Source of the DNA: a virus
DNA: 64,000 bases
Virus record (IMG/VR): IMGVR_UViG_3300032245_001860
Coordinates: 1 to 64,000 of that record
Direction: 5' to 3' (one strand)
The notes beneath the pieces were generated by a model. That model was given only the letters and a program-made list of their open reading frames with translations, had not been told where the DNA came from and ran no database searches. The position numbers were made by a program, and so were the translations under genes. Of this stretch, positions 28,879 to 49,903 are shown piece by piece. How positions within the stretch are numbered: position 1 is the first letter of the stretch; the number at the start of each line of letters is the position of its first letter.

Positions 28879-30405
28879 TTAATTAATTTGATTACCATTT
28901 TCGTCTAATAATGGCAGGTTATATTTTGCTGCTAAATCTTCCGCAGACATTATTTGATCAAATTTTGTAGCAGATTCATTTCCATAACTTTTTACAATTG
29001 CTATAGGTTTCCAGTTTACTAAAACAAATTCATTAAATTCATCTTCAATAAAATCTTTTTCATCTACTATAAGAGGTAATCTATCTGTCCATCTCATTTG
29101 TCTTTGTCTTGGAGCAAAAACATATTGATTTGTTTGTAGGTCATGGTTTGCTGCTAATGTAACGTGTCCTTTTAGCATTATTCCAGCATTGCCCACCCAT
29201 CTATTTTTGTATGGTGGTTTTTTGTAAGCTATGCATGACATTTCTACATTTGACAGATTCATTCTTGGATCTAATTTTGAAGCTTGTCCATAATGTATAT
29301 ATGTAAGAGAGTTTAAGAATTCTCTATTAGCTTTTTGGTTCCATGTAGCTTTGATGTCATGCATTACATCTCTTTGATCTTCTACCATACCGGGTTGAAA
29401 TTTTTCATTCCATTCTTTTAATTTATCTTCACCGGCCCATTCTGCAGTGTTATCAGGTTGTTTAGTAGTGTTTTGTGTATCTGGTAGTGCAGCTATCTTG
29501 ATTTGATTTGTAATTTGATCAGCTAATTCTAACAATCCATTTTCATCTAAATTATTAGCTATTTTAATTAGTGATGCAATGATTTGTTTTTTCTTTATAT
29601 TTTTTGCAACTGAGGTTTTTTGTAAATTTTCTATTTCTTCTTCTGTTGGTGTTAGGTAATCTTTTAGTTCTTCGTGAGCATTTAATTTATCTTCATACCT
29701 TGGTTTATATGCTCTTTCTGCATCATAAATTTCTGTTTCATTTGTCCATTGTTGTTCAAGCCATTCGTTCATGGCTTGCACTTCGGATCTGAATTCTGTA
29801 GGTAATATTTCACTTATTTTGAGTAGTGCAGGAAGAACACGTCTTATATTAGTTTTATTTGTATCTCTATAAACACTTTTAAGTTTTTTGAATTCTCTTC
29901 TTAGTCTATATGTTAATGCAAACTCGCCTTTTTCAATCATTTCTTTGAATTGATCTTTGAGTCTTGTGTTGCCTTCTTTCTTGGTAAATATATAATCATG
30001 AAGAAGATTGACAAACTTTGGAGAATCGATTAGTAGGTCTTGAAAATCATTATTAATATGTCCAGTGCCTTCATAGTCTCTTATAACGTCTGCAAAGAAT
30101 TTATCAGGTGTCCAGTCAATTTTAGTTTCTGGAAAAAATGGTAATTTGACTTTTGGTAATGGTTTTCCATATCCTGCAACATCTTGGTATAGTGTTTCTA
30201 ATAAATTTTGTGGTGGTAATGGTTCTAAATAATTTCTTTTTAAGTCATAAGTTCCAGGATGGTCAAGTCTTTGTGGAGGTAAGTTGAGGATAGCAAGTCT
30301 TGTAGCAAGATTTTGTATTTCATCACTATATCTGTATTGTTCTTGTTGATCAAGAGTATCAGAAATATCATATAAATTAGCTATTACTTGTCTATTATTC
30401 ATCAT
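28879..30405 (-). CDS. Large tagged protein of unknown function, 508 residues
   Basis: Two copies of the recurring helix-hairpin tag: near the N-terminus (QVIANLYDISDTLDQQEQYR) and near residue 275 (IIASLIKIANNLDENGLLEL, then ADQI). The region after the second tag (about 330-500) looks like a separate globular domain. I recognise no enzyme motif. The internal tag may mean an old fusion of two tagged genes. The start overlaps the next upstream gene by 4 nt. Confidence 0.65.
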   Translation of the reverse strand: MMNNRQVIANLYDISDTLDQQEQYRYSDEIQNLATRLAILNLPPQRLDHPGTYDLKRNYLEPLPPQNLLETLYQDVAGYGKPLPKVKLPFFPETKIDWTPDKFFADVIRDYEGTGHINNDFQDLLIDSPKFVNLLHDYIFTKKEGNTRLKDQFKEMIEKGEFALTYRLRREFKKLKSVYRDTNKTNIRRVLPALLKISEILPTEFRSEVQAMNEWLEQQWTNETEIYDAERAYKPRYEDKLNAHEELKDYLTPTEEEIENLQKTSVAKNIKKKQIIASLIKIANNLDENGLLELADQITNQIKIAALPDTQNTTKQPDNTAEWAGEDKLKEWNEKFQPGMVEDQRDVMHDIKATWNQKANREFLNSLTYIHYGQASKLDPRMNLSNVEMSCIAYKKPPYKNRWVGNAGIMLKGHVTLAANHDLQTNQYVFAPRQRQMRWTDRLPLIVDEKDFIEDEFNEFVLVNWKPIAIVKSYGNESATKFDQIMSAEDLAAKYNLPLLDENGNQIN

Positions 30406-30806
30406 TGATCCAACTTATCGTCTAAATCTCTTGCGCTATCAAAATCCATATTTTCTACAAGTAATGAAGATATTTTGTTTCCAGCTTCTTGTAGATTTTG
30501 TATTAGATCTCTTCTATGATAATAAAACATAGAGTCATCAGGGCCTTCTTCATTTTCAAGCAATTCTGGTAATGAATTTGCGGTATTGATGATTGTTAGG
30601 ATTTGTGATTTTAGGTTATCTAAAATCACATCAACATTACTAAAATCTTGTTGTATTTCTGGTTTTTGATCACCTGGCATAATAATATCGTCAGGAGAAA
30701 CATCATAAGCTAATTTAGTAAGAGAATTAGCTTCTTTATAATAGCCAGAATTATCAAGTGTATTTGCTATTTTAATTAGTGATGATACTATTTGTTTATT
30801 ATTCAT
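30402..30806 (-). CDS. Tagged protein, 134 residues
   Basis: N-terminal tag QIVSSLIKIANTLDNSGYYK then EANSLTKLAYD, followed by an acidic region and a C-terminal helical part ending DFDSARDLDDKLDQ. Start at 30806 (MNNKQ), matching the tagged N-termini of its neighbours. Confidence 0.6.
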   Translation of the reverse strand: MNNKQIVSSLIKIANTLDNSGYYKEANSLTKLAYDVSPDDIIMPGDQKPEIQQDFSNVDVILDNLKSQILTIINTANSLPELLENEEGPDDSMFYYHRRDLIQNLQEAGNKISSLLVENMDFDSARDLDDKLDQ

Positions 30807-30814
30807 TTTATTAT

Positions 30815-30846
30815 AGAAACAAGTGGTAAGTAAAATTACCACTTGT
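30815..30846. other. Stem-loop between tagged genes
   Basis: AAGTGGTAA / TTACCACTT with a 6-nt loop; the T-run lies on the plus side, so it is a poor terminator for the minus-strand operon and may act in RNA processing. Confidence 0.5.
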
Positions 30847-30860
30847 TTTTGTTATTTAAA

Positions 30861-31325
30861 TTATCTTAAAGAATTCATTATTTGATTTTTAATTTCTTCG
30901 TATCTATTTTTTTGTTCTCTATTCATTGTCATATTTTCTGCAACTAAATCATCTAAATCTCTGAACACATCTCCCATTTCTGAATGAGTTGGGTTATTGT
31001 AATCTTTGGAGTAATCTTCACGCAGTTTGTCAGCAGGATGATTTCCATGCATATCCATCATACTGCTAATTTCATCTAATCCATTTGAAAGATCCATAGT
31101 TGAATCATTTTCATCTTCGCCATATCCACAGTCAAAACATACACCATCTTCATCAAGATATTCACCACAATCTGGGCAGATACCATAATCTTCTGTGTTA
31201 TATTCATCGTCCTTAGCGATTCTTGACATCACTTTTGTCACTGTGTTGGCTTCTGTAAAAAGGCCAGTATTATCGAGTTCATTTGCGATCTTGTTTAAGG
31301 ATGCAACTATTTGTCTTTTGTTCAT
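30861..31325 (-). CDS. Tagged protein with zinc ribbon, 154 residues
   Basis: N-terminal tag QIVASLNKIANELDNTGLFT then EANTVTKV, followed at about residues 50-70 by a zinc ribbon (CPDCGEYLDEDGVCFDCGYG). The C-terminal half is helical. ATG 31325 with AAGGA upstream. Function unknown. Confidence 0.65.
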   Translation of the reverse strand: MNKRQIVASLNKIANELDNTGLFTEANTVTKVMSRIAKDDEYNTEDYGICPDCGEYLDEDGVCFDCGYGEDENDSTMDLSNGLDEISSMMDMHGNHPADKLREDYSKDYNNPTHSEMGDVFRDLDDLVAENMTMNREQKNRYEEIKNQIMNSLR

Positions 31326-31404
31326 ATTTTTTTCCTTTTGAGAGGGGTTCATTATATTTTTACAATTATAGAAAAGTAATCCCTTTCTCTTTTATAATTA
31401 GGAT

Positions 31405-33525: not shown

Positions 33526-33894
33526 ATGAAAGATGTAATTGCAAAGTTATTAAAAACTGCGAATGATTTAGATGCTATTGGTATGTTCAGTGATGCTAAT
33601 TCTTTAACAAGGTTAGCTTATGATTTTAACAATCCAGAAAAAGAAGAGATAGTGGATGATTCTTTTGTCAATGCGGATGAGCATGAAGAGTTGATGAGAG
33701 TATTAGATGAGATGTCTAACTCTGGCGAAATCGATGACACTCAAGTTCAGCATATTATGGAAATTATTCAAGAAGGCAATCCATCAGCTCATTCTTGGGA
33801 AAAAGAAGAGTTAGTAGATGATTCATTAGCTATGGATATGCCAGTAAAGCAATTTTCAGATAAGAAGAAAAATTACAGTATCAAGGTTTTATAA
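33526..33894 (+). CDS. Tagged acidic protein, 122 residues
   Basis: N-terminal tag DVIAKLLKTANDLDAIGMFS then DANSLTRLAYDF. The rest is acidic and likely unstructured. AGGAG precedes the ATG. First gene of a five-gene chain with the three giant paralogues. Confidence 0.65.
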   Translation: MKDVIAKLLKTANDLDAIGMFSDANSLTRLAYDFNNPEKEEIVDDSFVNADEHEELMRVLDEMSNSGEIDDTQVQHIMEIIQEGNPSAHSWEKEELVDDSLAMDMPVKQFSDKKKNYSIKVL

Positions 33895-34139
33895 TGAATA
33901 GAAATTTTGTTATTTTTGATGTAAGTGAAATTCCATTAATTGATTTTACTACAGTTATGGAAACTTCTCCAGATACATTGAGATTGTCAGTCGATGGCAC
34001 TAAAACATTTGTCAAGTGGGAAAATGAAGAACCTGCTTGTATTTCTCTTTTAACTACAAAAACACAAATTTATTCCTACGAAGAAATTTTAGAAATTTTA
34101 GCTGGACCTGAATGGACTCCAGTTATGCCTCCAGTGTAA
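33894..34139 (+). CDS. Unknown protein, 81 residues
   Basis: TAATG overlap with the tagged gene before it. Beta-strand-rich (NRNFVIFDVSEIPLIDFTTV). No recognised family. Confidence 0.55.
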   Translation: MNRNFVIFDVSEIPLIDFTTVMETSPDTLRLSVDGTKTFVKWENEEPACISLLTTKTQIYSYEEILEILAGPEWTPVMPPV

Positions 34140-34140
34140 A

Positions 34141-37134
34141 ATGAAAAAATTAAGTTATAGAATTGTAATATCTGGTATCAAAGAAGATATTGAAGCGCTT
34201 TGCAAACATATTGGCTTTACTGATCCTGAATATATAAAAGTTGTTAGGCAAAAAGTTGATGACTACAAAGGTTATCAAGTTTTTGCTGCTTGGTTATATA
34301 TTAGGGATGTTGAACCTGAATCATATGTTGTTGCATTGAATAAATATGTTAAAGCCAGACAATTAGATCCTTCAAAAATAAAAGTCACTAAAGATGCTGT
34401 TTCTATTAATGACAATGTTTTTAAGGATAAAATTGAGCTTACTGAATATATCCATTCTACATTCCCCATTATGCAAGTTGAGCAAAAAAAAGATAATGAG
34501 GAAGTAAAAAGCGAAGATCCAGTAATTGTCAACAAAGATAATTCTATAAAAATATATGAAGTTAATAGTGCAGATGATGGTAGAAGATTAGTTGGTGATG
34601 ACACTTCTTGGTGTATTGGGTACAAAGGCCCAAGTAATATGTGGCAGGGTTATAGAGACACCAAAGAATCTTCATTTTTTATTGTTTTTGATAATAATCC
34701 TCCTACTCCTGATCAAAGAAAAGTTGCGATTGATTTTACTTTTAGAGGTGTAGAACTTACTGATATACCTAATCGCACAGGTACACAATTGACTAATGGT
34801 ATGGATTGGGATGCTTATTCTAATTATCTTAAAAGTAGAGGGATTAATTTAGAAGCAAAAAGAGTTAATCCTAATACTGGTCAAGAAGAAAAGATACTTC
34901 AAAATAAACCTGTATCTCCTGAAGAAAAAATTCAAAAAGCAACATTTTCTACTGTAAATATGACTTCTGCCAGAATATTAGAAAAAAATACTGTTATGTT
35001 ATGGCAGTCTGGTAAATGCGAAATATATACGGGTACTCTTAACAGAAATTTTTTAGTTGAGCACGTTTTTCCTAAAGACCCAAAACAAACTTATCTTCAA
35101 TATCCTGATGACCGCACTGATTTTTTGATTACTATTGACAATCCAGATGCTATTTATTACACAGCAAGATGGATGTCTCAAGGAAAACCATTTACAGATG
35201 AAATATTAACATTTCTTATGAAATCTGTTGGTGGTGAAGATGTTTTATCAAAATTCTTAAACTCTGGCGCTGAAGTTCAAGACTCTCAATACAAAATTAT
35301 AAGAGAAAATAAAAGCTTATGGAAAACATACATAAGAACACAAATAATTAAGGCTGAGCAAACTGGGTACTATACACTTCCTTTTGAATATTTCAAAGAC
35401 TTAATGAATTCTGGCAACGATAAACTGATTACATATTATTTATCACTTGGCCTTAATGCAAGCCGAGAATTTGATGTCAAATTATTAAGAGATGAATTTC
35501 CAAATTACCTAAAATTATTATTGATGAGTTCGATGGGAGAAAATAAATCAAATCAATTTGCTCCATCAGTGCAACAAATAATAGTTGATACAAAAGATAA
35601 AGAAATTATTCAAAAATTTGTTCAAGTAGCAACAAATGTAACACCAGATATTGCCTCACAAATACAATCTGATCCAGAATTGTTTTTATTTTATAGTAAA
35701 GCTAATTTGGCGAAACCAGGCAGGAATGCATTTTTTGGTGAATTGGGCAATAAAATGGTTGATGCTGTTTTGAGATCTGGTGATAGAGAAGCAGTAAAAA
35801 AGGCAGCTCTTGGTAGGGGCTTTGAATATCGTGATTTTGCCCTGGCTAAAGAAATGGGTGTTTATGATGAAGCAAAGTTATCCATTTTAAATCCTAATAC
35901 TGTTGATCCAGATATATATCAATTATATGATCCTTCCAATCCTTATGATGTGTCATTAGTAGAGCAAATTCAAGATGTAAATGTTTTATCTTATTTGCAT
36001 CCTGAGTGGAGATCAAATTCAAAAGTTTCGATGGCTAATGCAATAATTAATTTTGAAAATAGACCTCATTCTCAAGAAAAACCAATACCTGATTCTGTTT
36101 ATGAACTAATGTTATATTTGATCAATGACAGTGATTATATGGCTTTTATAAGTCAATATGAATTAAGCGAAAGTGAACAAAATAAACTCAAATCTCTTTA
36201 TTCAGAATTGCAAAATTCATTAAAAAATCCAGAATTTGTAAAAACCTTTTTTACCAATTTCCAATTGATTAAGGGCAATACTCCTGGAATCAGTAGAATG
36301 TTTTCAATGATATATAATAATGTATCCGATGTTTTAAATATTCTACCGAGTGAAGCTTTATCAATTCCAGAAGTAAAAGAATATATTGAAGAGTATATAG
36401 AAGATATTAAATTTGAAAGTCTTTTAAAACATATTGATGTACCTTGGTTGTATGAAGAATTTGTGGAAAGTTGCGCTAAAGACCAAGACTTCTTAAGGCA
36501 AAAATTTAATGATTTTTACAATAAAGACAAAGAATTTGCTTTCCATTTTTTAGGTGATTGTTTTGAAAAACAAAAACCAGATTTAGGTTATTTTATTGCT
36601 ATTCCAGTGAACGTAAAAATTAAGGTAGCTTCTATTTATTTTGAAATTTATCCTGACGAAAAAGAAAGTGAAGAGACCTTAAAAAATAATTTTTTTGATT
36701 CTTTACTGATGAATAAAGGAAATAGAAGTTCTATCACTGAACAGCTTTACATATTAAGAAATTTTCCTAAATTATTCTATTATAAAATAGTACATGGTCT
36801 TCTTATGTTAAGATACATTTATCCAGAAATAAGATCTGCATTAAGACAAATGTATCCTAATATAGCCAATTTAATTCTTCAATATGAAACTGAAACAAAA
36901 TATGGAAGTGATTATTTTGATGAAAATACTGAAGAAGTAATGAGAGGGAAAAGACCAGATGAAGTTGAACCAGAACAACAAGATACATTCTATGATGGTC
37001 CCTCTGAAGAAGATTGGCCAAAGCAAGCTTCAATAAAACTTATGGTAAAAGTTGCCCAAAAACTTGATTTAAAAAAGAAATATAAGTTAGCAGATAAGTT
37101 TACAAATATATTGAGAAAATACAATGTTCAATAA
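34141..37134 (+). CDS. Giant tandem paralogue 1, 997 residues
   Basis: N-terminal domain (about 1-110) with a conserved AAWLYIRD and IHSTFP. Core (about 140-260): IYEVNSADDGRRLVGDDTSW, C, then Y....SNMWQGYR, FFIVFDNNPPTPDQRKVAID and LTDIPNRTG. The long C-terminal part is helical and ends with the tag LMVKVAQKLDLKKKYKLADK. The W-C..Y / D...P / beta-strand order is reminiscent of the PcfJ core (HC..Y / D...P / TIEI) seen in two genes at 44-47.7 kb, but I cannot assign a known fold. Possibly a virion or injected protein (inference). Confidence 0.7.
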   Translation: MKKLSYRIVISGIKEDIEALCKHIGFTDPEYIKVVRQKVDDYKGYQVFAAWLYIRDVEPESYVVALNKYVKARQLDPSKIKVTKDAVSINDNVFKDKIELTEYIHSTFPIMQVEQKKDNEEVKSEDPVIVNKDNSIKIYEVNSADDGRRLVGDDTSWCIGYKGPSNMWQGYRDTKESSFFIVFDNNPPTPDQRKVAIDFTFRGVELTDIPNRTGTQLTNGMDWDAYSNYLKSRGINLEAKRVNPNTGQEEKILQNKPVSPEEKIQKATFSTVNMTSARILEKNTVMLWQSGKCEIYTGTLNRNFLVEHVFPKDPKQTYLQYPDDRTDFLITIDNPDAIYYTARWMSQGKPFTDEILTFLMKSVGGEDVLSKFLNSGAEVQDSQYKIIRENKSLWKTYIRTQIIKAEQTGYYTLPFEYFKDLMNSGNDKLITYYLSLGLNASREFDVKLLRDEFPNYLKLLLMSSMGENKSNQFAPSVQQIIVDTKDKEIIQKFVQVATNVTPDIASQIQSDPELFLFYSKANLAKPGRNAFFGELGNKMVDAVLRSGDREAVKKAALGRGFEYRDFALAKEMGVYDEAKLSILNPNTVDPDIYQLYDPSNPYDVSLVEQIQDVNVLSYLHPEWRSNSKVSMANAIINFENRPHSQEKPIPDSVYELMLYLINDSDYMAFISQYELSESEQNKLKSLYSELQNSLKNPEFVKTFFTNFQLIKGNTPGISRMFSMIYNNVSDVLNILPSEALSIPEVKEYIEEYIEDIKFESLLKHIDVPWLYEEFVESCAKDQDFLRQKFNDFYNKDKEFAFHFLGDCFEKQKPDLGYFIAIPVNVKIKVASIYFEIYPDEKESEETLKNNFFDSLLMNKGNRSSITEQLYILRNFPKLFYYKIVHGLLMLRYIYPEIRSALRQMYPNIANLILQYETETKYGSDYFDENTEEVMRGKRPDEVEPEQQDTFYDGPSEEDWPKQASIKLMVKVAQKLDLKKKYKLADKFTNILRKYNVQ

Positions 37135-39853
37135 TCGTATAGTAGTTGCGCAAGCTGAATTATTAAGACAAATCTTTCTTGCCAAAGAAAAAGATTATAG
37201 TGAGTTTAGAGATTTAGTTCAATCATATCAAGGCCCATATAAACTTTTGTCTGCTTGGTTATTTGCAAGAGATTTTCAAAAACCTCAAGTGGATGATATT
37301 GTTAGACATTTAGATCCATATATCAGAAAAGGTCATTTGAAGCCTGGTGAAATAAATGTTTCACCTAATGCAGTAAAAATCAGAGACAGTCAAGCTTTTG
37401 AGGAAATAGTTCCTTTCACAGATTATATTCATGCGCAATTTCCAGTAGCAACAAAAGAATCTAAAGAACCTGTAAAACAACAAGTTGAAGATATTCCTGT
37501 AGCCACCGGAGATGGAATAAAAATATATCAAATCAATAGTGCAGATGATGGAAGAAGATTAGTTGGCGGCGATACAAAATGGTGTATTGGTTATCCTGGT
37601 CCTAATAATATGTGGCCTCATTATAGACAAAATCAAGCTTCCACATTTTTTGTTGTATATGATGAAAATCCTCCAACTTCTGATCAAAGAAAAGTAGCTA
37701 TTGATTTTACTAAAAATGATATTCTATTAACAGATATACCTAACACAACTGGACATCAATTGTCTAATGGTATGGACTGGGAAGATTATTCTAAATATCT
37801 TATGAAAAAGGGCGTAAATTTAGATGCTACAAGAATAAACCCTGAAACCAATGAAGAAGAAAAGATTTTTCAAAATAAACCAGTTACACCACAAGAAAAA
37901 TTAGTAACTACTTTATTTAATTTGACAAGAAATCAAAGTAAATATCAACCCAATTTAGGTCTTACTCCAGAAGATATAAAAATGTGGTCTACTGGTAAGT
38001 TTCAAATAAGATCTGATATGGAAAACCAAACTGTCATTCAAGCAGATGATAATGATCCAAATTATTTTTATTTTAGAAAAAATTCCAGATCAACTCCAAT
38101 AAATCTTCCAACAGAAGAAGAAATTCCTGGCATAAGCATTTCAAAAGAGCCTATGGATAATCCTTCAGGTGATGGAAGAACCCTATATAGTTCTATCACC
38201 ATAAATACAGATGAAACAAAAACATTTCTATCAAAATTTATTGGTATGGGATGGATTTTACCAGATCCAATATTTGATTATGTTATTGATTTACCTGATG
38301 GCAAAGATATCATAATTCAATATATAGACACAGGATTAAAACTTCCAAAACAGCAACTGGACAAAATAAAAAATGTACCAAGTTTCATAAAAAGCTATGT
38401 TCGTAAACAACTTCAAGCTGTAGAAAGAGCTGGTTCTACAGATTTAGAATTTTTAGAATTTGCAGATCCAAATGACCTAAAAATCAGAAATCAAGTTTTA
38501 GACGCACTTTATTCAAGATATGAAAATCAATCATATGACGATATGAATATTTTCTTTGAAAATACTCCATTAGAATGGTACAAAATACCTCAAATAGGTT
38601 TATTCTTAACAGATAAAACTGATTATATTGATTTCAATGATGAGTTAGCTATAAAAGTTGCCCTTGCTAAAGGTATGTGGTTTTATCTTAATGAAAATCC
38701 AACACTTGAAAATGCTCTAATATATTTGCATGATTTAAATGCTATAAATTCATTTAAAGACAAAGCAATAGCAGAAAAATATCATCCAACATTTTTTGAA
38801 GCTCCTTATTTTTTAGGAGTATGGAAAAAATTGTGGGATAAAGTTCCTGATTCTTTAAAAAAACTTCCTGAACTAAATCAATATAAAGCAGTGGGTGAAT
38901 TTGAACCATATGGTGGTTTACATCTTGAGCAACCATATCCCGGCGATGACATTGAATTATTATATGAAACAGCTGCAATTAATATTTTGGCTGGTAATGC
39001 ACAAAGAACTTATTTATATAAAAATAAACCTGAATTTTGGATGTATTTAATAAAGAATTTTAACAAATTGATGGAAGGTGTTTTCAGGAATATTAATTAT
39101 ATAACTCTTGAATCTGAAACTGATGAAGATGGCAATGATACTGAAACTAAAACTTATAGTAGACATGATCAAAGAGAAAAATTTTTAAAGTATTTTTCTT
39201 ATGCTTTGTCAACTAATATTTTAAGTAATCCTGAAATCATATCAGCTATAAAAGACAATTTTAAGGAAAATGAAACAGATTATATATTATCTGGTTTTAT
39301 GAATGTTCCACAAGTATTAGATTATTTCGTTGAAAAAATAAATACTTTTTCAGATGCATATCAAATAGCTGATTTTAGGTTTTCAAATTTATTTATGAAA
39401 GAAAACCCTATTTTAAGAAAAATTACACAAAATGGTTTTGATGTTGATAATTTCTTAAATGTTACATTTCAGCCTTTGCATCTTATTTATAATGCATACA
39501 AATGGTATCCAGAAATAATTGATAAGATTAGCGATGAAGGTTTCCTTAAAATTTTAAAATCTCCAAGAGACAGTACTATTGCAAGAGAATATTTCAGTTT
39601 CTTGCTTGAAAAAAGACCTAATGTTATATGGACTTTATTTGAAGAAGGTTCAAGAATATTTACCTACGAGCAAAGAGTTTTCCTGACACAAAAGAAAAAA
39701 GAAATGTCTCAACAACCACAAGAACCAATTGAAGAAGAACCTACTACAGCTTTTGTAAAATCAATAGTGAAGGTGGCTAATAAACTTGACAGCAAAAATA
39801 AATACAAGTTAGCGGACAAGTTTACAAATATCTTGAGAAAATACAATGTTTAA
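37124..39853 (+). CDS. Giant tandem paralogue 2, 909 residues
   Basis: Same plan as the gene at 34141: IYQINSADDGRRLVGGDTKW, C, NMWPHYR, FFVVYDENPPTSDQRKVAID, LTDIPNTTG; C-terminal tag SIVKVANKLDSKNKYKLADK. Overlaps gene 1 by 11 nt. The junction sequence (end of one gene with the start MFNNRIVVA of the next) is repeated almost exactly at the next junction, so the array arose by tandem duplication. Confidence 0.7.
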   Translation: MFNNRIVVAQAELLRQIFLAKEKDYSEFRDLVQSYQGPYKLLSAWLFARDFQKPQVDDIVRHLDPYIRKGHLKPGEINVSPNAVKIRDSQAFEEIVPFTDYIHAQFPVATKESKEPVKQQVEDIPVATGDGIKIYQINSADDGRRLVGGDTKWCIGYPGPNNMWPHYRQNQASTFFVVYDENPPTSDQRKVAIDFTKNDILLTDIPNTTGHQLSNGMDWEDYSKYLMKKGVNLDATRINPETNEEEKIFQNKPVTPQEKLVTTLFNLTRNQSKYQPNLGLTPEDIKMWSTGKFQIRSDMENQTVIQADDNDPNYFYFRKNSRSTPINLPTEEEIPGISISKEPMDNPSGDGRTLYSSITINTDETKTFLSKFIGMGWILPDPIFDYVIDLPDGKDIIIQYIDTGLKLPKQQLDKIKNVPSFIKSYVRKQLQAVERAGSTDLEFLEFADPNDLKIRNQVLDALYSRYENQSYDDMNIFFENTPLEWYKIPQIGLFLTDKTDYIDFNDELAIKVALAKGMWFYLNENPTLENALIYLHDLNAINSFKDKAIAEKYHPTFFEAPYFLGVWKKLWDKVPDSLKKLPELNQYKAVGEFEPYGGLHLEQPYPGDDIELLYETAAINILAGNAQRTYLYKNKPEFWMYLIKNFNKLMEGVFRNINYITLESETDEDGNDTETKTYSRHDQREKFLKYFSYALSTNILSNPEIISAIKDNFKENETDYILSGFMNVPQVLDYFVEKINTFSDAYQIADFRFSNLFMKENPILRKITQNGFDVDNFLNVTFQPLHLIYNAYKWYPEIIDKISDEGFLKILKSPRDSTIAREYFSFLLEKRPNVIWTLFEEGSRIFTYEQRVFLTQKKKEMSQQPQEPIEEEPTTAFVKSIVKVANKLDSKNKYKLADKFTNILRKYNV

Positions 39854-42563
39854 TTATCGCATAGTAGTAGCAAATAAAGATTTATTCATTTCAATCTTTA
39901 GATCTGTTGGTAAAGATTACAACAACTATAAAGAAACAATTAATAACTATAATTCTGTTTTCAAATCTATTGCTGCTTGGATGCTTGCAAGAGACTCCAA
40001 TGAATTTGCAATTAACGATATAGTTAGCCATCTTACCGAATATATAAATCGTAAAAAATTAAACCCTGCTAATATCAAAGTATCTATAGCTAATATTGTA
40101 ATTAATGACAAATCTATTCCTGATTTAGAAGAATTATTCAACTATGTCCATGCCACCTTTCCAATAGTAAAGAAACAAGAAGAACAACCAGCTGAAGAAA
40201 TAATAGAACGTACTCCTATTCTCACTGGCGATGGAATACAGATATTCAAAGTAGATAGGGCTCAAGATAGTAAAGAACTTGCAGCTGATACTTCTTGGTG
40301 CATAGCTTATAAAGGCCCAAATAATATGTGGCAAAGCTATAGGAGTAACCAAGCTGCTACTTTCTTCATTGTATGGGATGAAAATCCACCAACACCTAAT
40401 CAAAGAAAAGTGGCTTTGCAATATAATAAAAATAATGTCCAAATCACTGATATTGTAAACAGAACAGGTTTTAATTTAACTAACGACATTACTTTTGAAT
40501 ATCAAGGACAAACTATTACAGGCAGAGATATACCTACTTATCTTACATATTTGAAAAGTAAGGGAGTGGATATTGATGCCACAACTATTAACCCTGAAAC
40601 TGGCCAAGAAGAAAAAATACTTAAAAACAAACCTATCACTCCTGAAGAAGCAATGGAGACAGAGATTGGCGCATATGTAAGATATAATTCTTCAGATATT
40701 AGTGTTGATAATATTAAAAGTTGGGCTACAGGAGAGTTTACTCTTACCATTCCTCAAGGTTTCATCAACAAAGTCCGTGATGGAGAATATCAAGTTTTTA
40801 CTAAAGATAATTACTCTGGAAGAAGTTTTAAAGTTCCTTATGATTTTGTAACTGAAGAAATACCATTTGATGATCACCCCCGGAACGCTTTACCTTTGCC
40901 ATTAAAATCCGTCACTTTTGAATCAGAAAATATAAAAACATACCTTGCCAAATTCATCGGAATGGGATGGATTATGTCTGATGAAATTGTAGATTATTTG
41001 ATGGAAGTTCCTGGTGGTAAAGATTACTTAATTCAATATGTAAATACTGGCTTACAATTACCTAAAAGTCAAGTTGATAAATTAAGCACTAATAAACAAC
41101 TTTTTAATTCCTATTTGAAACAACAACTGACAGCATTCGAATTAGGGCACAACAATGGAGAGTTTTTACAATATATTGATACTGATAATGAAGAAGTAAA
41201 AAATAAAATTCTTGAAAGATATAAGAAAAATTCATTTATCAATATTCCCTTAAAATGGCTTAAAGTATTACCACAAATAGGTGTTTTTAAGTTTACAGGT
41301 CCTAACTTTGATTTTGGAGATGAATTTATAAATCAATTGGCTATTTCTCATGGTAATACTGACATTTATGAACAATTTCCAACTCTTGAAAATACAAAAA
41401 TTTTACTTCAATTTCCTGAAGCAATTGATAAACTAAAACCAAGAGCTGAAGCAGAAGGATATTCTTCAAATGTATTTAGTGAGATTGATCAATTAAGTGA
41501 TTGGACTGTTAGATGGAAATCCGTGCCAGAAATATTTCACGACAATCCTGAATTTCAAATATATAAATCCGCTGCTTTAGCTGGTCAAAATTCATATGAC
41601 AGAATGGATCTCAAGAAACACGAAGGTAATAATCCAGATGATTTCTTATATTACACAATTCTTTTGATGAATGATGAAATACAACATGAAGAAAAAAATT
41701 CTCCGATAATCAAAAACCCTGAATTTTGGAAATTTGCAATTAATAACTTTGATCATTTGATAGATACAGTATTTAAAAAAATCAAAATATGGCATAGAGA
41801 TTTACCTGATAATTTTGATGAAGATAATGATGACGAAGAAAATTTTGATGAAATAGAAGACAAAGATAAACAAAGGGTAGAACTTGCTGGTTTCTTAAAA
41901 AATATGCCACCTGAAATATTCTTCTCCCCTGAAATGGTTGAATTGATCAAGAGCAAGTTTGACCTTGAAATAATAAACAATGCATTAGTAAACTATTTGC
42001 AAAAAGGTTGGAATCTTGACGCATTTTCAGCATACATAAAAGATTTTGCTGATTTAGCTCAGTTTTCTAATTATGGATTTATATTTTTTACTCATCCAAA
42101 TAATTTAATTAAAACATTAGTGAGAGATCATTACGATGAACAAAAATTCTTATATGCTTTGAGTAATTTAGCTGGCTTTAAATCAAGTGTTTTTGTAGAA
42201 CTTACTAAATGGCTTCCAGAATTATTTCTAAAAGTATCTGATGAAGCAATATTGAAAATGCTTACCAATATTCGTGGCACAATACCAAGAGAATTTTTAG
42301 ATCATATCTTAGAATATAAACCAGATTTCATAAAAAAATATTCTGATCGATTAATACCTAAAATGCATTCACAAGATGTATGGTATTATCTTACTGAAGA
42401 ATTGAGAAAACAACAAGAAGAAGCAGATAAAACAATTGAAGAAGAAGATAAGTTTGCTTCTGTAAAAATTATGGTGAAAGTGGCACAAAAGCTTGATATT
42501 AAAAAGAAATATGAGTTAGCAGATAAACTAACTCATATTCTAAAGGTAAAAACCTCTCAATAG
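39846..42563 (+). CDS. Giant tandem paralogue 3, 905 residues
   Basis: Core IFKVDRAQDSKELAADTSWC, NMWQSYR, FFIVWDENPPTPNQRKVALQ, ITDIVNRTG; tag IMVKVAQKLDIKKKYELADK at the C-terminus. Overlaps gene 2 by 8 nt. Beyond the core the three copies share the order of blocks (GMGWI..D, GGKDYLIQYVNTGL, L..P.WIK) while loops differ in length, a pattern of diversification after duplication. Confidence 0.7.
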   Translation: MFNYRIVVANKDLFISIFRSVGKDYNNYKETINNYNSVFKSIAAWMLARDSNEFAINDIVSHLTEYINRKKLNPANIKVSIANIVINDKSIPDLEELFNYVHATFPIVKKQEEQPAEEIIERTPILTGDGIQIFKVDRAQDSKELAADTSWCIAYKGPNNMWQSYRSNQAATFFIVWDENPPTPNQRKVALQYNKNNVQITDIVNRTGFNLTNDITFEYQGQTITGRDIPTYLTYLKSKGVDIDATTINPETGQEEKILKNKPITPEEAMETEIGAYVRYNSSDISVDNIKSWATGEFTLTIPQGFINKVRDGEYQVFTKDNYSGRSFKVPYDFVTEEIPFDDHPRNALPLPLKSVTFESENIKTYLAKFIGMGWIMSDEIVDYLMEVPGGKDYLIQYVNTGLQLPKSQVDKLSTNKQLFNSYLKQQLTAFELGHNNGEFLQYIDTDNEEVKNKILERYKKNSFINIPLKWLKVLPQIGVFKFTGPNFDFGDEFINQLAISHGNTDIYEQFPTLENTKILLQFPEAIDKLKPRAEAEGYSSNVFSEIDQLSDWTVRWKSVPEIFHDNPEFQIYKSAALAGQNSYDRMDLKKHEGNNPDDFLYYTILLMNDEIQHEEKNSPIIKNPEFWKFAINNFDHLIDTVFKKIKIWHRDLPDNFDEDNDDEENFDEIEDKDKQRVELAGFLKNMPPEIFFSPEMVELIKSKFDLEIINNALVNYLQKGWNLDAFSAYIKDFADLAQFSNYGFIFFTHPNNLIKTLVRDHYDEQKFLYALSNLAGFKSSVFVELTKWLPELFLKVSDEAILKMLTNIRGTIPREFLDHILEYKPDFIKKYSDRLIPKMHSQDVWYYLTEELRKQQEEADKTIEEEDKFASVKIMVKVAQKLDIKKKYELADKLTHILKVKTSQ

Positions 42564-42975: not shown

Positions 42976-43938
42976 TTAATCAATATTTTCAGCTACAAGT
43001 TCAGCTCTATTTGTCCAGCCTTTTCCATATATATCTGCTTGTTCATCAGATTTATACCTATGGATCTGTGCATCAAGAATTTGCTTCGTAAATGTTTTAT
43101 CATCTTTTTTGCATTTTGACCAGATAGCAGCAAGAGTTTTAGGACCCATAAAACCAGTTTGTTCAATATTTAATAATCTTTGAACAAATCTAATTGAATC
43201 TTGTGGGCCATCAGTTAAAGCCATTGACATCATAGCTTTAGCAACATTATGAGGAAGTTGATCACCTTTTATCACTCCCCAAAATAATTTTCTATAAATT
43301 TTCAATGCTCTTGTCTTTGATATCTTAAAGACATCAGAAGACTTGATTTTGTTCTGTTTTGCCCAATCATTATATGTTCTTTGGGTGATGCCAAAATTAG
43401 TTCTACCGCCTCTATCTGATTTTTCATCAGTTTTTCCACCTTCAAGATTTAACATCAACTTCATTGTTTCGTCAAAATTGCCTTTAGGTAACTGTGAAGC
43501 TTTGAATGGTTCAGGTTTTTTTACTTCTTGCTCTTTTACAGGTTCAAATTTAGGTCTTGGAGCAGGTTGAACTCTTCTGCGTAATCTTTTTTGAACAGGT
43601 TTTTCTACTGGGGTTTCAATTTGTTTTGGAGCTGGTTTTGCTTGTGGCTTGACATATGTATCTTCAACAAATTCAGAATCTTCCCCATATTGATCCATGA
43701 AAGCTTGTTGGTCCATCATTCTTTGTTCAGCAGCAGGAGGTTTAGTTGGTAAAGGACTGACAACATTCCCTAAAGTTCCAATACCAACTGCTAATGGAAG
43801 TGCTTTTAAGAAATCAACAGGTCTGAAAGTTTTTTCGCCAGCTAATTTTATAAGTTGATCAAGATTGTCTGCTGTTTGAAAATCTCCAATATCATCGTAG
43901 ATTCTTGCAGCAATTCTTATATTATTTACAGAGGTCAT
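42976..43938 (-). CDS. GH108-type endolysin with N-terminal tag
   Basis: 320 residues. Residues 5-32 are the recurring tag (NIRIAARIYDDIGDFQTADN). A proline/lysine-rich linker runs to about 150. The C-terminal domain has LEGGK (E166), DRGGRTNFGITQRTY (175-189) and NVAKAMMSMALTDGP, typical of GH108 N-acetylmuramidases, with the PG_binding_3 end (RFVQRLLNI......GPKTLAAI). It cuts peptidoglycan. The tag suggests a virion-borne lysin rather than, or as well as, a free one (inference). Confidence 0.85.
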   Translation of the reverse strand: MTSVNNIRIAARIYDDIGDFQTADNLDQLIKLAGEKTFRPVDFLKALPLAVGIGTLGNVVSPLPTKPPAAEQRMMDQQAFMDQYGEDSEFVEDTYVKPQAKPAPKQIETPVEKPVQKRLRRRVQPAPRPKFEPVKEQEVKKPEPFKASQLPKGNFDETMKLMLNLEGGKTDEKSDRGGRTNFGITQRTYNDWAKQNKIKSSDVFKISKTRALKIYRKLFWGVIKGDQLPHNVAKAMMSMALTDGPQDSIRFVQRLLNIEQTGFMGPKTLAAIWSKCKKDDKTFTKQILDAQIHRYKSDEQADIYGKGWTNRAELVAENID

Positions 43939-44134: not shown

Positions 44135-45868
44135 TTAGTTTCCTTTTTTATAGTTTTTATTATTATACACACCTGCATAGGCCCAATTTTCATCTTTATC
44201 AGTCATTGGCCTTTCAGTGAGCTTGTCTATTGTTTGATTGTTATTTTCTTCTATTTCGTGTTTAGGAGCAAATAATCTTAATTGTGATCTGTTATTTTCT
44301 ATTTGTTTTTCATGAAGATCAAGAAGTGGTTGTGTTTTTAAGAACGGGATTATTTCATCATCACTGTAGAAATTTTTTCTATATCCACTTGGTATTCTAA
44401 AATCATTGCCTGTCTTTTCTTTATATTGAAATGCAAATTTACTTTTCTCAAAGAAATTTTCTATTTTATTTGCCACTAAAAAATAAAGATATTCAGGTTG
44501 TTTTTGATACCAAGACATGAATGGTTCTTTTGATTCTGAATCTTTATATTTTTCTTTTGCTTCTTCAAACTTTTTTGTAGCTGTTTCAAGTACACCATTG
44601 ACATCTAAATATCTTTCAAAATTGTGTGTAGTAAATGATTTTTTTAATGCTAATTCTGCTTTGTGTTCTAATGCAGTGTAGAAAGTGTTAGCGTAATCAT
44701 CAAGAGGATAATCTTCTATTGTATATGCTTCATTATCCCAATTAAATGCACTACCTGATCTTTGTAATCCATCATGCATTTCACTAATTGCAGCATCTAT
44801 AATATCTGGAATATGTGAGCCATAAAGATTTGATTCAGCGAATTGTTCATGATTCCAAACAGGAGATATAATTCCAAATCTGTTAAAATCTTCTGTTACA
44901 TCATCATCAATAGCATCATATTCTGATTCATCTGGGCCATAAATAGATTCTGTTATAGCGTATCCAATTTGATCAGGTTCATATGTCCAATAAATTCTTT
45001 CTTGCCAATCTTCAAAATGATCAGCTACAGGATTTATATTAGATTGTTTTTTGATATCTTCTCTGTCGTCAAAAAATTCTCTAATTTTTTCCACTAAATC
45101 ATCATCTTCAACTTTAGCATTATTTGGGCCCTTGATTTGAATTACTTTATCACCTTGTATTTCAATTGTTGCTTTAGGTTGATTTTGTGGATCTCTTAAG
45201 GAATAGATTCTTGAATGTCCTCTTCTCACTGCATCCCAATATCCAGCAACACAGTGATGCATTTTTGCACCTTCAACATCAAGATCATTTTCTGATTTGA
45301 CATTTACCATATTCCAACCATCAGGATATGCCATTACTACTTCTCGGTCAGCTGGATTGTAAAATTTACCTCCACCTTTACCTATAAGTATTTGCTCCCA
45401 TTCATCTGTGTCTTCAACCACTTGTTCCCAGGACTTCAATCCAAGATTATAATCAGGGTCATTTGTTTCAATATTGTTGACAAAATCTTGCATATGGAGA
45501 GCTTGTTCTAAAAAATTAGCATGCTCACCATTCATACCACCTGAAGGAATATTATGATCATATTCACCATTAGGTTTTTGAGGTTGTATTCTCCAGCCTT
45601 TTAATTTATGAAATAACCAGTTTTTAAATCTTTCATTTGTGAAGTTGTCTAATATGAATTTTTCTTCTCTTGTTGGTCTATTTTGACTTGAAAGATTTTC
45701 TAATTCTTGCAATGTGATATTTGGATTTTGTTTGATTGCGCCTAACATTTTACCTTTGGCAGCATTATCAAATTTGGGGTCAGAAAAAACAGCTAAAATA
45801 GATTCATTTATGCCTTGAGTTCTAAGCTTTTCTACTTCATCTTGTAAACTTGCAAATCTGTACCACAT
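44135..45868 (-). CDS. PcfJ-like protein with MWY N-terminus, 577 residues
   Basis: Begins MWYRFASLQ. Residues about 210-290: SENDLDVEGAKMHHCVAGYW, then RGHSRIYSLRDPQNQPKATI, EIQGDKVIQIKGPNN. This is the PcfJ-like pattern (HCV..Y...G...I.SLR....P..TiEi), known from conjugative and phage proteins of unknown activity. The next gene is a paralogue. Large helical C-terminus. Confidence 0.75.
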   Translation of the reverse strand: MWYRFASLQDEVEKLRTQGINESILAVFSDPKFDNAAKGKMLGAIKQNPNITLQELENLSSQNRPTREEKFILDNFTNERFKNWLFHKLKGWRIQPQKPNGEYDHNIPSGGMNGEHANFLEQALHMQDFVNNIETNDPDYNLGLKSWEQVVEDTDEWEQILIGKGGGKFYNPADREVVMAYPDGWNMVNVKSENDLDVEGAKMHHCVAGYWDAVRRGHSRIYSLRDPQNQPKATIEIQGDKVIQIKGPNNAKVEDDDLVEKIREFFDDREDIKKQSNINPVADHFEDWQERIYWTYEPDQIGYAITESIYGPDESEYDAIDDDVTEDFNRFGIISPVWNHEQFAESNLYGSHIPDIIDAAISEMHDGLQRSGSAFNWDNEAYTIEDYPLDDYANTFYTALEHKAELALKKSFTTHNFERYLDVNGVLETATKKFEEAKEKYKDSESKEPFMSWYQKQPEYLYFLVANKIENFFEKSKFAFQYKEKTGNDFRIPSGYRKNFYSDDEIIPFLKTQPLLDLHEKQIENNRSQLRLFAPKHEIEENNNQTIDKLTERPMTDKDENWAYAGVYNNKNYKKGN

Positions 45869-45871
45869 AGT

Positions 45872-47680
45872 TTAAGCCTTGTTCGCCAATCTAAATCTTT
45901 TATTATTGAATGAATATCTCCACTCATTCACGCCTTCAGTAAATAATTTTTGCTGTTGTCTTCTACTTAAGAAATCTTGGTAATAATCTTCTGTTCCTCT
46001 ATACAATGCTTCACTTGGAGTAACTGGTGAAACATCTAAATTAATAGATAGTTTATTTGCAATATCATAAAACTCTTTTGGCATATTGTTTCTTATATAG
46101 GTATACAAAGCTCTATAAAAATAAACAGGATAAACATCATAAATATTTTCATATTCTTTGAGTTGATGATAACCTCTTGAATCTGGCCTCTCATATGGTT
46201 GATTTGCTAATTCATTTATTTCATCATCACTCATATTTTCAAGATTTAATTTGACAGGTTTGTTTCCAGGATTAAATTCTTCACTTACTGCTGCTTCTTT
46301 ATAATCTCTAATTTTTTCTAATTCTTCTGAGAGAGCTTCTTTGTATTTATGTCTTATATCATCTATATTAAGACCGCTTATTATAATTTCTCTGTTTGTT
46401 CCTAAAGTACCAACTTGAGATGCATAGTCCTTAATTTTTTCTAAATCTTTACGAATATACATATCGCCAAGTAAAGAAATTAATTCATCAAATCTATCAT
46501 CATCAGGTATTTCTTGATAAGTTTTATAATAACCAGCATTATCTACCCCGACTTGACTGATTAAATATTCAACTGGCAAGTCTCTGTAAAGGTCATCATA
46601 ATCTCTTTCAATTGGCCTGTAACGAACACCCAATTCGTCAGTCATTGTTTCATCATTTTCAGGATTTAAATAATCTGCAATTGCATACAAAGCATCTTGT
46701 TCAGACATATTCTGATTCAGGTTCAGGTCTTCATTGAGATCATGTTTAGAATAAAAATTATTTTGTTCAATCCAGTAAAGAGCTAATTTTTTATACTCTG
46801 GTTTGGGTGGTTTATTGCCTTTGCCTTGAATTTGCTTTACTTTGTCAGGCAATCCTATTTCTATAGTAACATGTGGTTTGTTTGATTCATCTCTTAAAGA
46901 ATAAGTGTCGCTAATGCCTTGTTCATATAAGCCATGGTAATTATTTGTGCCTGTACAGTGACCCATATTTTGACCTTCAGCATCAAAATCTCTTTCTTGG
47001 GTAAGTTTGACCATCATCCAATCATTGTATTCTTCAGGTAATCCTAAAGATTTAACTGTCTGTGCATCAAAAATCATTACTACATTTGGGTCAACTATTT
47101 TGCCATTTTCTTTCTTGATTTTAGAATATGTTGCACCTGGTTCTTGATTACTTAATTCTTCATGCCATATTTCACTGGCTCTACTTGCTTGATCTAAATT
47201 CATAGAAAAAATATTGAATCTTGGGTTTTCACTTACATATTCAACATACCAATCTAAAATATGATAAAGCTCATTTGTAACACCGATAATTGGTCCTATA
47301 GCAATATGTGAAAATTTAGGATAACTGAATTTTTCTGGGTCATGTTGATTTGGTCTGTAAGAAGGTAAAGCTACTCTTTCAACCCATTTATAAAAATTAG
47401 CTTTTTGTTCTTCGGAAATATTCATTCCTGATAATCTTGTGTCTAAATCTGCTAATAATCTTAATTCGTCATTAGATACTTTTTGTAATTGATTAGTTTG
47501 GAATTTGCCTTGTAATTCATCCCAAGGCATAAGAGGATTTTGCATCAAGGCTCCAATATATTTACCTCTTAATGGTATATCGGTCATTGCTTGTAGGTTA
47601 TCAATTGTGTCATCGCTTACACCTTTAGATTTAAGTGTTTCAAAAGCTCGTTCTACGTTTTGTGCAAGTCTATACCACAT
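45872..47680 (-). CDS. PcfJ-like protein with MWY N-terminus, 602 residues
   Basis: Begins MWYRLAQNV. Core: QERDFDAEGQNMGHCTGTNN then YSLRDESNKPHVTIEIGLPD and VKQIQGKGNKP, a PcfJ-like motif series. It shares the N-terminal ~50 residues' pattern (L...G.....L......P..GKYIGAL.QNP....) with the gene after it. Probable duplication. Function unknown. Confidence 0.75.
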   Translation of the reverse strand: MWYRLAQNVERAFETLKSKGVSDDTIDNLQAMTDIPLRGKYIGALMQNPLMPWDELQGKFQTNQLQKVSNDELRLLADLDTRLSGMNISEEQKANFYKWVERVALPSYRPNQHDPEKFSYPKFSHIAIGPIIGVTNELYHILDWYVEYVSENPRFNIFSMNLDQASRASEIWHEELSNQEPGATYSKIKKENGKIVDPNVVMIFDAQTVKSLGLPEEYNDWMMVKLTQERDFDAEGQNMGHCTGTNNYHGLYEQGISDTYSLRDESNKPHVTIEIGLPDKVKQIQGKGNKPPKPEYKKLALYWIEQNNFYSKHDLNEDLNLNQNMSEQDALYAIADYLNPENDETMTDELGVRYRPIERDYDDLYRDLPVEYLISQVGVDNAGYYKTYQEIPDDDRFDELISLLGDMYIRKDLEKIKDYASQVGTLGTNREIIISGLNIDDIRHKYKEALSEELEKIRDYKEAAVSEEFNPGNKPVKLNLENMSDDEINELANQPYERPDSRGYHQLKEYENIYDVYPVYFYRALYTYIRNNMPKEFYDIANKLSINLDVSPVTPSEALYRGTEDYYQDFLSRRQQQKLFTEGVNEWRYSFNNKRFRLANKA

Positions 47681-48136: not shown

Positions 48137-48216
48137 TAACATTCACTTAACATAACTTGTTAATAAATACATAATAATAATTGTGTTTGCAGACTTTTCT
48201 TTCAAAGGTTTATAAA

Positions 48217-49116
48217 ATGAAAAAAGCTTTTACCTTAATTGAACTTCTCGTAGTTATTGCCATCATTGCTATTTTGGCTGCTATTCTCTTCCCTGTCTTC
48301 GCTCAGGCTCGTGATAAGGCTCGTGGTGCTTCTTGTCTTTCCAACCTTAAGCAAATCGGAACATCCACCATGATGTATGTTCAAGATTACGATGAGAGCT
48401 ATTATCCTCACCGCTTCAACTGCCGTGATGCATCTGGTGCTTTCCAAGTTTGCCCTCAATATGTTGGCGATCCTGCTGCTGCAGCCTATGATTCTAACTC
48501 TTCAATGCGTTATTATTGGGTTTACTTGCTTCAACCATATGTAAAGAACTACCAACTGTTTAAGTGTCCAAGTAATCCAACAGCATTTGTCCCTGGCGAC
48601 AAGGCGAAGGTTAACTTCAACGCTCCAGGTGCCCTCGGAACAAACTATGGTGGACAGAACTCATATGGTCACAATGATGCTTGGATGAGCCCTGCAGGTG
48701 CTTTCGCTGATGCAAGTGGCAACCCAGCAACTGTTGCTGGTGCAAGTGTTTCCCGTCCAGCTGGTGTTATTCTTGTCACTGATGCATCTTATTATGGTGT
48801 TGTTCCTGACATTATGAACGAATCAGGTCTCCTTGAAACCAACAAGTTTACAGCTGATGAACTTGCTGCAATCCAAAACTATGTCAATGGTCAAGGTTCT
48901 CAATACAAGTCTTACTGGAAAAACCTTGGTAATGGGGGCTGGAGTGCAAATGGCGGAACTGTAACTGCTGCTACTGCTCTTTCAAGAATGTCTGGTCGTC
49001 ACACTGGTGTCTTGAATGCAATCTTTGTTGATGGACATGCTAAGGCTGTTCAATATAAGAAGGCTGTTGGTGACCTTTGTCTGTGGACTACTGCCGAGTA
49101 TGCTGGCTGTAACTAA
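48217..49116 (+). CDS. Prepilin-type (DUF1559-like, H-X9-DG) protein
   Basis: 299 residues. KKA^[16 protein letters not shown] is a type IV prepilin leader (cleavage before F5, conserved E9), followed by [16 protein letters not shown] and [20 protein letters not shown]. The C-terminus [20 protein letters not shown] is the H-X9-DG signature. This is a pseudopilin family typical of Armatimonadota/Planctomycetota. The gene is visibly richer in G+C than its neighbours, which suggests recent transfer from the host. Role on a phage is unknown. Start 48217 follows AAAGG. Confidence 0.85.
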
Positions 49117-49177: not shown

Positions 49178-49903
49178 ATGGAAAAATTAAGAGGTTTGTT
49201 AATTTTAAGAGGAACAAGTTTTCGGCATAAGAATACAACAGGTCATTGGAAATCAGTATATCAACAAATTGCCTGTACACTGAGCCATCTTAAGTTAGTC
49301 AAAACTACAATAAAAAAATATGGCTGTAATTTTGATATTGCATTAGATACATTAAGCACACCTTACGATCTAATTATATTATTTATCTTGAGAAAGTATT
49401 TAGTTTACAGAAACATCATGTCCTGGCCTGATTACAGTCAGATAGATGGAATATTGAGATTTTTCTGTCAAATAGAATCAAAACTGTTTGAATATGATTT
49501 TATTTTAATTGCTCGAAACGATATTATTTTATTTGATGAATTTATTAATAAATTTAATCCTAATGATGATAAAATTAAGTTTCCTTTCATTCATTCTTAC
49601 AGAACAAGAAGAGTTTATGGAACAAGTGAGTTTCCTATAGTTGGAGATGCTTTCATGTATTTTCCAAAAAAATATTTCTTCACATTAGCTATAATCAACA
49701 TAATTGCTTCTGGATTTCACATGCATGATATTGTTCACTTGATGAAAGAAGCAAACTTTGATTTTGAATTTGATGTATATTGTAATACCTATCATGATAC
49801 AAACTCAGAACTTGAATGGAATCCTTTATATAAGATGAGTGGCAGACCTCAATCTAAAGTAATTGGCTCTGATTTAAATTTGAAATATCCAGAAGATTTT
49901 TAA
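49178..49903 (+). CDS. Glycosyltransferase-like paralogue 1, 241 residues
   Basis: Starts MEKLRGLLILRGTSFR, contains FILIARNDIILFDEF, DAFMYFPKKYF, MHDIVH and a C-terminal YHDTNSELEWNPLYKMSGRP. It has two close relatives at 57473 and 58228. The 'vvRND' after a run of hydrophobic residues and the later H/D residues fit a GT-A type transferase, and the surrounding genes are glycan genes. No specific substrate can be named. Confidence 0.6.
   Translation: MEKLRGLLILRGTSFRHKNTTGHWKSVYQQIACTLSHLKLVKTTIKKYGCNFDIALDTLSTPYDLIILFILRKYLVYRNIMSWPDYSQIDGILRFFCQIESKLFEYDFILIARNDIILFDEFINKFNPNDDKIKFPFIHSYRTRRVYGTSEFPIVGDAFMYFPKKYFFTLAIINIIASGFHMHDIVHLMKEANFDFEFDVYCNTYHDTNSELEWNPLYKMSGRPQSKVIGSDLNLKYPEDF

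What the first reader, a model, noticed from the sequence alone, without database searches (positions are those of the whole stretch)
34141..42563. Tandem triplication of ~900-1000-residue genes
Three adjacent genes with the same N-domain, W-C..Y core and C-terminal tag, and with near-identical junctions (tag end + MFN(N/Y)RIVVA start, overlapping 8-11 nt). Over 8.4 kb devoted to one diversifying unknown family suggests strong selection, perhaps different targets or hosts.
Basis: partly seen in the sequence, partly recalled or inferred. Interest (0 to 1): 0.7.

Follow-up and report, generated by a model that had tools for sequence, protein, structure and literature searches.

The report
Triplicated tagged jumbo-phage protein family
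A large uncultured bacterial virus carries three side-by-side copies of a large gene from a little-known family of giant-phage proteins, one distant relative of which has been detected in virus particles, and the copies end in a short tag that the virus also attaches to about a dozen other proteins.

Summary
Genes A (34141-37134), B (37124-39853) and C (39846-42563) are true tandem paralogues overlapping by 11 and 8 nt. They share an N-terminal helical domain (30-35% identity), a Trp-Cys core (52-63%), a poorly conserved helical-repeat half (14-34%) and a C-terminal tag of about 33 aa (56-75%). They lie in a 316-kb virus record. Related contigs carry A alone, A+C, or (window only) A+B+C.

In the A-only genomes the tag is a hybrid, A-type at its 5' end and C-type at its 3' end and flank, so copies are lost by recombination between tag-coding repeats. 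dN/dS is below 1 everywhere, so diversifying selection is not supported.

The core belongs to an unnamed W-C domain family of jumbo phages: five clustered copies in Salicola phage SCTP-2, single genes in Pseudomonas phages Paride, MIJ3 and PA5oct. The PA5oct homologue is recorded as a structural protein by ESI-MS/MS. The tag recurs on about 11 other proteins of this phage, including one of two GH108 lysozymes.

Best reading: virion-borne, probably ejected, solenoid proteins addressed by a shared helical tag. Family and duplication are shown; virion location and tag function are inferred.

The parts
34141..37134 (+). Gene A, 997 aa: N-helical domain, W-C core (about residues 130-265), helical-repeat half, C-terminal tag (963-994). 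Present in every relative whose contig covers the locus.
37124..39853 (+). Gene B, 909 aa, extra copy seen only in this virus; overlaps A by 11 nt; sister to the C clade on a long branch.
   Evidence: AlphaFold model
39846..42563 (+). Gene C, 905 aa; overlaps B by 8 nt; orthologues (46-48% identity) directly after A in five relatives, and at a contig edge in L025.
37490..37919 (+). W-C core domain of gene B (about residues 123-265), the best conserved part
   Evidence: family profile
37027..37122 (+). C-terminal tag of A (two-helix motif KVAxKLDxKxKYxLADKxTxIL)
39749..39844 (+). C-terminal tag of B; the codons just after it (N-V) contain the start codon of C
42456..42548 (+). C-terminal tag of C; no downstream start codon
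42553..42574 (+). Intrinsic-terminator-like hairpin CCTCTC-AATA-GAGAGG-TTTTTT overlapping the stop codon of C; not listed by the consensus scan, read directly from the sequence
33526..33894 (+). Small protein (122 aa) with the same tag at its N-terminus, upstream on the same strand
33894..34139 (+). Conserved 81-aa protein immediately upstream of A (62-67% identity in relatives)
42976..43938 (-). GH108 lysozyme (Pfam 1.4e-20) carrying the tag at its N-terminus followed by a long linker
28879..30405 (-). 508-aa protein with the tag inside (274-305)
30402..30842 (-). 146-aa protein with N-terminal tag
30861..31352 (-). 163-aa protein with N-terminal tag
44135..45868 (-). PcfJ-domain protein (PF14284, 7.7e-13), convergent with the array here and in all relatives
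45872..47680 (-). Second PcfJ-domain protein (PF14284, 3.2e-8), paralogue of the previous one

Best explanation
The three genes are tandem paralogues of a jumbo-phage protein family built from an N-terminal helical domain, a conserved alpha/beta W-C domain and a long, variable helical-repeat half. They were made by duplication, and copies are lost by recombination at the tag-coding ends. Shown: homology, architecture, copy-number variation, hybrid tags and purifying selection. Inferred: the proteins are carried in the virion (probably inside the head and ejected with the DNA). The C-terminal two-helix tag, shared with about 11 other proteins of this phage, would be the docking or address module that places them. 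The W-C domain would be the common working part, and the variable solenoid would give each copy its own protein partner. The overlapping starts would couple translation of A, B and C. The chemistry of the W-C domain is not established.
For: Paralogy. Family: a profile of isolated-phage W-C proteins ranks all array members above every other ORF and above all reversed decoys (766 ORF entries plus 766 decoys), E 1.2e-5 to 0.024, next hit 0.68. hhalign gives 73%, E 3e-5, with W-C in register. The array profile finds SCTP2_40 in the 440-kb SCTP-2 genome at E 2.2e-4. Foldseek top hits with probability 1.00 have the lengths (378 and 547 aa) of two of the five clustered SCTP-2 copies. Virion: PA5oct EST35_0205 is 'structural protein, ESI-MS/MS'. 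The convergent neighbour is a PcfJ protein whose YerA41 relative is annotated structural, with a GH108 lysozyme nearby. Tag: 14 sites in the own genome at E<=0.001, on only one of two GH108 copies. Recombination: hybrid tags in A-only genomes; synonymous divergence of the L020 tag is 0.64-1.01 against 0.15-0.26 for the whole gene.
Against: No proteomics exists for this virus. The link to PA5oct is indirect: SCTP2_40 to MIJ3_46 (E 5e-3), then 61% identity; the direct array profile against MIJ3 is only E 0.045, and PA5oct itself is not found. MIJ3 proteomics named only four major proteins, not this one. The array lies about 77 kb from terminase and 88 kb from portal. The tag was not seen in the PA5oct or SCTP-2 homologues, so virion location need not depend on it. 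Tagged proteins include many small ones of unknown location.
Confidence: 0.5

Rival explanations
1. The proteins are made late but stay in the cell, as intracellular scaffolds or inhibitors of host or superinfection factors. The tag then sends proteins to an intracellular phage compartment or a common partner rather than to the virion.
For: The tag is on proteins of many sizes, in clusters away from the head genes. No proteomics for this phage. Array 77-88 kb from terminase and portal.
Against: A family member is a virion protein by ESI-MS/MS in PA5oct. A PcfJ relative of the convergent neighbour is annotated structural in YerA41. One tagged protein lies between terminase and portal (124170-124622).
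Confidence: 0.25
2. They are tail or receptor-binding proteins that diversify to reach different hosts.
For: Variable C half and copy-number variation.
Against: dN/dS well below 1 everywhere; no similarity to fibres, baseplate or adhesins; the variable part is a helical solenoid, not beta-rich.
Confidence: 0.08
3. The extra copies are largely neutral: a duplication-prone locus gains and loses copies through the tag repeats and selection only maintains A.
For: A is in all relatives covering the locus, C is lost in at least one lineage, B is unique. Hybrid tags show deletion by recombination.
Against: C is under purifying selection in several lineages (dN/dS 0.24-0.38, core 0.08-0.17), and B kept a full open frame with an intact core and tag.
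Confidence: 0.12
4. The W-C core is a divergent PcfJ domain, so the array and its convergent PcfJ neighbours are one superfamily.
For: Same order of elements (helix, x-C-x-x-Y, helix, three strands) in both; PcfJ-like viral proteins appear in the core's Foldseek list at ranks 10 and 19; constant adjacency.
Against: No Pfam PcfJ hit in any array member; hhalign of the core or the wide family against PcfJ gives nothing.
Confidence: 0.3

Closest known systems
Unnamed W-C domain proteins of jumbo phages (Salicola phage SCTP-2 genes 34, 37, 40, 45, 46; Pseudomonas phages Paride_0002, MIJ3_00046, PA5oct EST35_0205; Caulobacter phage CcrBL9 gp486)
   Same: G/D-x-x-T-x-W-C-[TI]-[AG] motif followed by F/W-x-x-Y and a strand-rich part; helical N-terminal region; helical or repeat C half in most (DUF4116 repeats in two of the SCTP-2 copies); clustered paralogues in SCTP-2.
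   Different: Array proteins are about twice as long, have the NPPT...RKVA insertion, a long solenoid and the C-terminal tag; only here are the genes tandem and overlapping.
PcfJ-like proteins (PF14284)
   Same: Similar element order around a conserved C-x-x-Y; encoded next door in every relative.
   Different: No significant sequence or profile match.
T4 internal head proteins with a capsid targeting sequence
   Same: A short shared terminal sequence on several phage proteins that would decide packaging.
   Different: The T4 signal is about 10 residues, N-terminal and cut off (general knowledge); this tag is about 33 residues, helical, at either end or internal, with no cleavage site shown.
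SPN3US paralogue families of ejection (head-internal) proteins (PMC10052503)
   Same: Many paralogous head proteins in a giant phage.
   Different: No sequence relation tested; in SPN3US some of these proteins carry cleaved propeptides.
Polyvalent proteins (PMC5512222)
   Same: Large multidomain phage proteins probably packaged and delivered with DNA.
   Different: No known polyvalent enzymatic domain was found here; PcfJ is not mentioned in that paper.

Membership tests
Jumbo-phage W-C domain family | Sequence-profile match to the W-C domain of isolated-phage members | tested here: met
   all array members above all decoys; E 2.2e-4 in SCTP-2
Jumbo-phage W-C domain family | Predicted fold of the core resembles other members | tested here: met
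   probability 1.00 for several targets; identity with SCTP-2 genes inferred from equal lengths only; model pLDDT 75
Jumbo-phage W-C domain family | Virion protein | not testable with these tools
   shown by annotation for PA5oct EST35_0205 only
PcfJ (PF14284) | Score over the Pfam cut-off | tested here: not met
   the two convergent neighbours do pass
PcfJ (PF14284) | Profile-profile similarity to PcfJ neighbours | tested here: not met
DUF4116 repeat proteins | DUF4116 repeats in the C half | tested here: not met
   no Pfam hit in A, B, C; present in SCTP-2 relatives; weak Foldseek hit only
T4-type capsid targeting sequence | Short shared terminal sequence on several proteins | tested here: met
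T4-type capsid targeting sequence | N-terminal and cleaved by the prohead protease | tested here: inconclusive
   tag is C-terminal in the array, N-terminal or internal elsewhere; cleavage not testable
Phage polyvalent proteins | Several known effector enzymatic domains in one chain | tested here: not met
   no known domain
GNAT acetyltransferase fold | Significant fold match | tested here: not met
   best PDB hits are GNATs but E 0.14 or worse, probability 0.28 or less

The most novel reading that the evidence does not exclude
The two-helix tag is a general virion address (or common docking helix pair) of this phage group. Placed at the N-end, C-end or inside otherwise unrelated proteins, it sends them (giant W-C solenoid proteins, a lysozyme, small proteins) into the particle. 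Its repeated coding sequence also drives gain and loss of whole cargo genes.
Probability: 0.35. Interest if true: 0.65.

Novelty: new variant of a known kind. Interest (0 to 1): 0.45.

Why it matters
It ties three unannotated giant genes to an unnamed domain family that is spread over jumbo phages (including the Pseudomonas phages Paride and PA5oct) and that in one case is a mass-spectrometry-identified virion component, so the family can be tested in culturable phages. The tag shared by about fourteen proteins suggests a sorting signal of an uncultured phage group, and the hybrid tags show how copy number changes.

Tried and rejected
Pfam and PHROGs on A, B, C: nothing significant. PDB by sequence: nothing. 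tblastn of B, and of the core, in 50,697 phage records: nothing. Scan of 84,980 prokaryote genomes with the core: nothing. Whole-protein Foldseek: no hit under 1e-3, only ankyrin, DUF4116 and poxvirus helical repeats. Core as a GNAT: weak hits only, rejected. Core as a PcfJ domain: similar layout, but hhalign and Pfam negative. Diversifying selection: rejected by dN/dS below 1. The full-length profile A10 failed to recover the array, whereas the trimmed W-C profile A11 did.

Full report
Observation. The window is the first 64 kb of a 315,852-base virus record. ORFs A 34141-37134, B 37124-39853 and C 39846-42563 are present as described. B matches C over full length (E 3.8e-154) and A over the N-terminal third (E 8e-79) plus the tag. 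No further copy exists in the genome. Identity differs by region: N-domain 30-35%, W-C core 52-63%, C half 14-34%, tag 56-75%. The junctions share TTTACAAATAT-TTGAGAAAATACAATGTT-AAT, so the last codons of A and B (N-V) contain the next start codon. A hairpin CCTCTC-AATA-GAGAGG followed by six T overlaps the stop of C (sequence); the consensus scan did not list it.

Relatives. Nine contigs of IMG/VR carry the family. Three (two of which, L020 and L024, look like the same virus) have A alone. Five have A+C (in L037 A is cut by the contig end). One (L025) shows C at a contig edge. Only the window has A+B+C. A is about 39% and C 46-48% identical to the orthologues; B has none. In the tree A forms one clade and C another, with B as sister to C on a long branch. 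B is therefore either an old copy lost elsewhere or a fast-evolving new one; this is not settled. Because the window, which lies outside the other A sequences in the tree, already has A and C, A-only is best read as a derived loss.

Mechanism of copy loss. In the A-only genomes the tag begins like A (GTGAAAAT) and continues like C (CGCTCAAAAA...AAACTAACCTATATTTTAAGAAAAAAG), followed by the flank that lies after C elsewhere. For L020 the tag region has synonymous divergence of 0.64-1.01 from other A tags while the whole gene has 0.15-0.26. This is what a crossover between the A and C tag-coding repeats would leave.

Selection. Pairwise dN/dS is 0.08-0.20 in the core, about 0.25-0.46 in the C half, and 0.22-0.38 overall among orthologues. 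The C half evolves faster but not above neutrality.

Structure. An AlphaFold model of B from 14 sequences (mean pLDDT 70, pTM 0.49) shows a helical N-domain, an alpha/beta core, a long helical-repeat region (about 363-862) and the tag as two helices (874-887, 893-906, low confidence). The core alone reaches pLDDT 75.

Family. The core model's best viral Foldseek hits (probability 1.00) include A0A248SJT2 (378 aa) and A0A248SJ83 (547 aa). These lengths equal those of SCTP2_40 and SCTP2_46 of Salicola phage SCTP-2; the identification rests on length and my recollection of the accession block. Independently, the array profile searched against the whole SCTP-2 genome hits SCTP2_40 (E 2.2e-4). SCTP-2 has five such genes in 12 kb, two of them matching DUF4116 repeats. 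tblastn leads from SCTP2_40 to Pseudomonas phages MIJ3 and Paride, and from MIJ3_46 to PA5oct EST35_0205 at 61%, recorded as 'structural protein' with note ESI-MS/MS. A profile of these isolated-phage domains ranks all array members first among 766 ORF entries and 766 reversed decoys. hhalign gives 73%, E 3e-5, W-C in register. Direct detection of the Wroclawvirus genes with the array profile is weak (E 0.045 in MIJ3, nothing in PA5oct), so the virion inference is two steps away.

Neighbourhood. In every relative the array is followed convergently by one or two PcfJ-domain proteins. The best annotated phage relative of that neighbour is YerA41_160, labelled structural protein, with a GH108 lysozyme nearby. 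The YerA41 paper reports 63 particle-associated proteins (PMC7354516), but the supplementary list was not readable here. The resemblance between PcfJ and the W-C core is visible by eye only; all profile tests were negative.

Tag. The tag profile finds 14 sites in the own genome and 17 in the 358-kb relative at E<=0.001. In the array it is C-terminal; in most others N-terminal; once internal. Of two GH108 lysozyme genes, one (42976-43938) carries the tag and a long linker, while the other (298506-299138) is compact and untagged. This pairing suggests the tag decides location; the location itself is not shown.

Verdict. A real tandem family, members of a phage-wide but unnamed W-C domain family, most likely virion-borne and ejected. 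The tag is the most original feature. Giant phages with many paralogous ejection proteins are known (SPN3US, PMC10052503), and large packaged multidomain proteins are a described theme (PMC5512222), so the kind is known while this form is new.

Noticed in passing
window 44135-45868, 45872-47680; own genome 66166-67254, 130051-130566, 147687-148322, 240331-240864, 242036-242323, 290962-291414: A second recurrent N-terminal leader, MWY(K/R)xxA, on about 11 otherwise different proteins including both PcfJ-like proteins and one next to the portal gene. The starts of B and C (MFNYRIVVA) resemble it.
   Followed up: partly
window 42976-43938 and own genome 298506-299138: Two GH108 lysozymes, one with the helical tag plus long linker, one compact without it: a natural pair for testing what the tag does.
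   Followed up: partly
window 48181-49116; L020 and L023 8.5-9.7 kb: DUF1559 protein with N-terminal pilin-type methylation motif (typical of Planctomycetota, from general knowledge). It is 85% identical in two relatives whose other genes are mostly about 35-60% identical, and 34-37% in two others: looks like recent allele exchange and hints at the host.
   Followed up: no
own genome 290-301 kb (291435, 292790, 297278, 299092, 299823, 300533): Another paralogous cluster of at least six about 200-260 aa proteins ('LTIIARYNEDIEW...YNKG'), partly in tandem.
   Followed up: no
own genome 130575-132917: The portal ORF (780 aa) has an HNH-endonuclease-like stretch at residues 666-762 (phrog_559, E 1.9e-4), perhaps a fused or inserted homing endonuclease.
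   Followed up: no
window 49178-49903, 57473-58195, 58228-58950: Three 240-aa paralogues, two of them adjacent, related to a protein near the array in L020.
   Followed up: no
own genome 302607-303173: Tagged protein with a C-terminal domain (ARHNCDNPGPRTKAKYWSC) conserved in pelagiphages and roseophages.
   Followed up: partly
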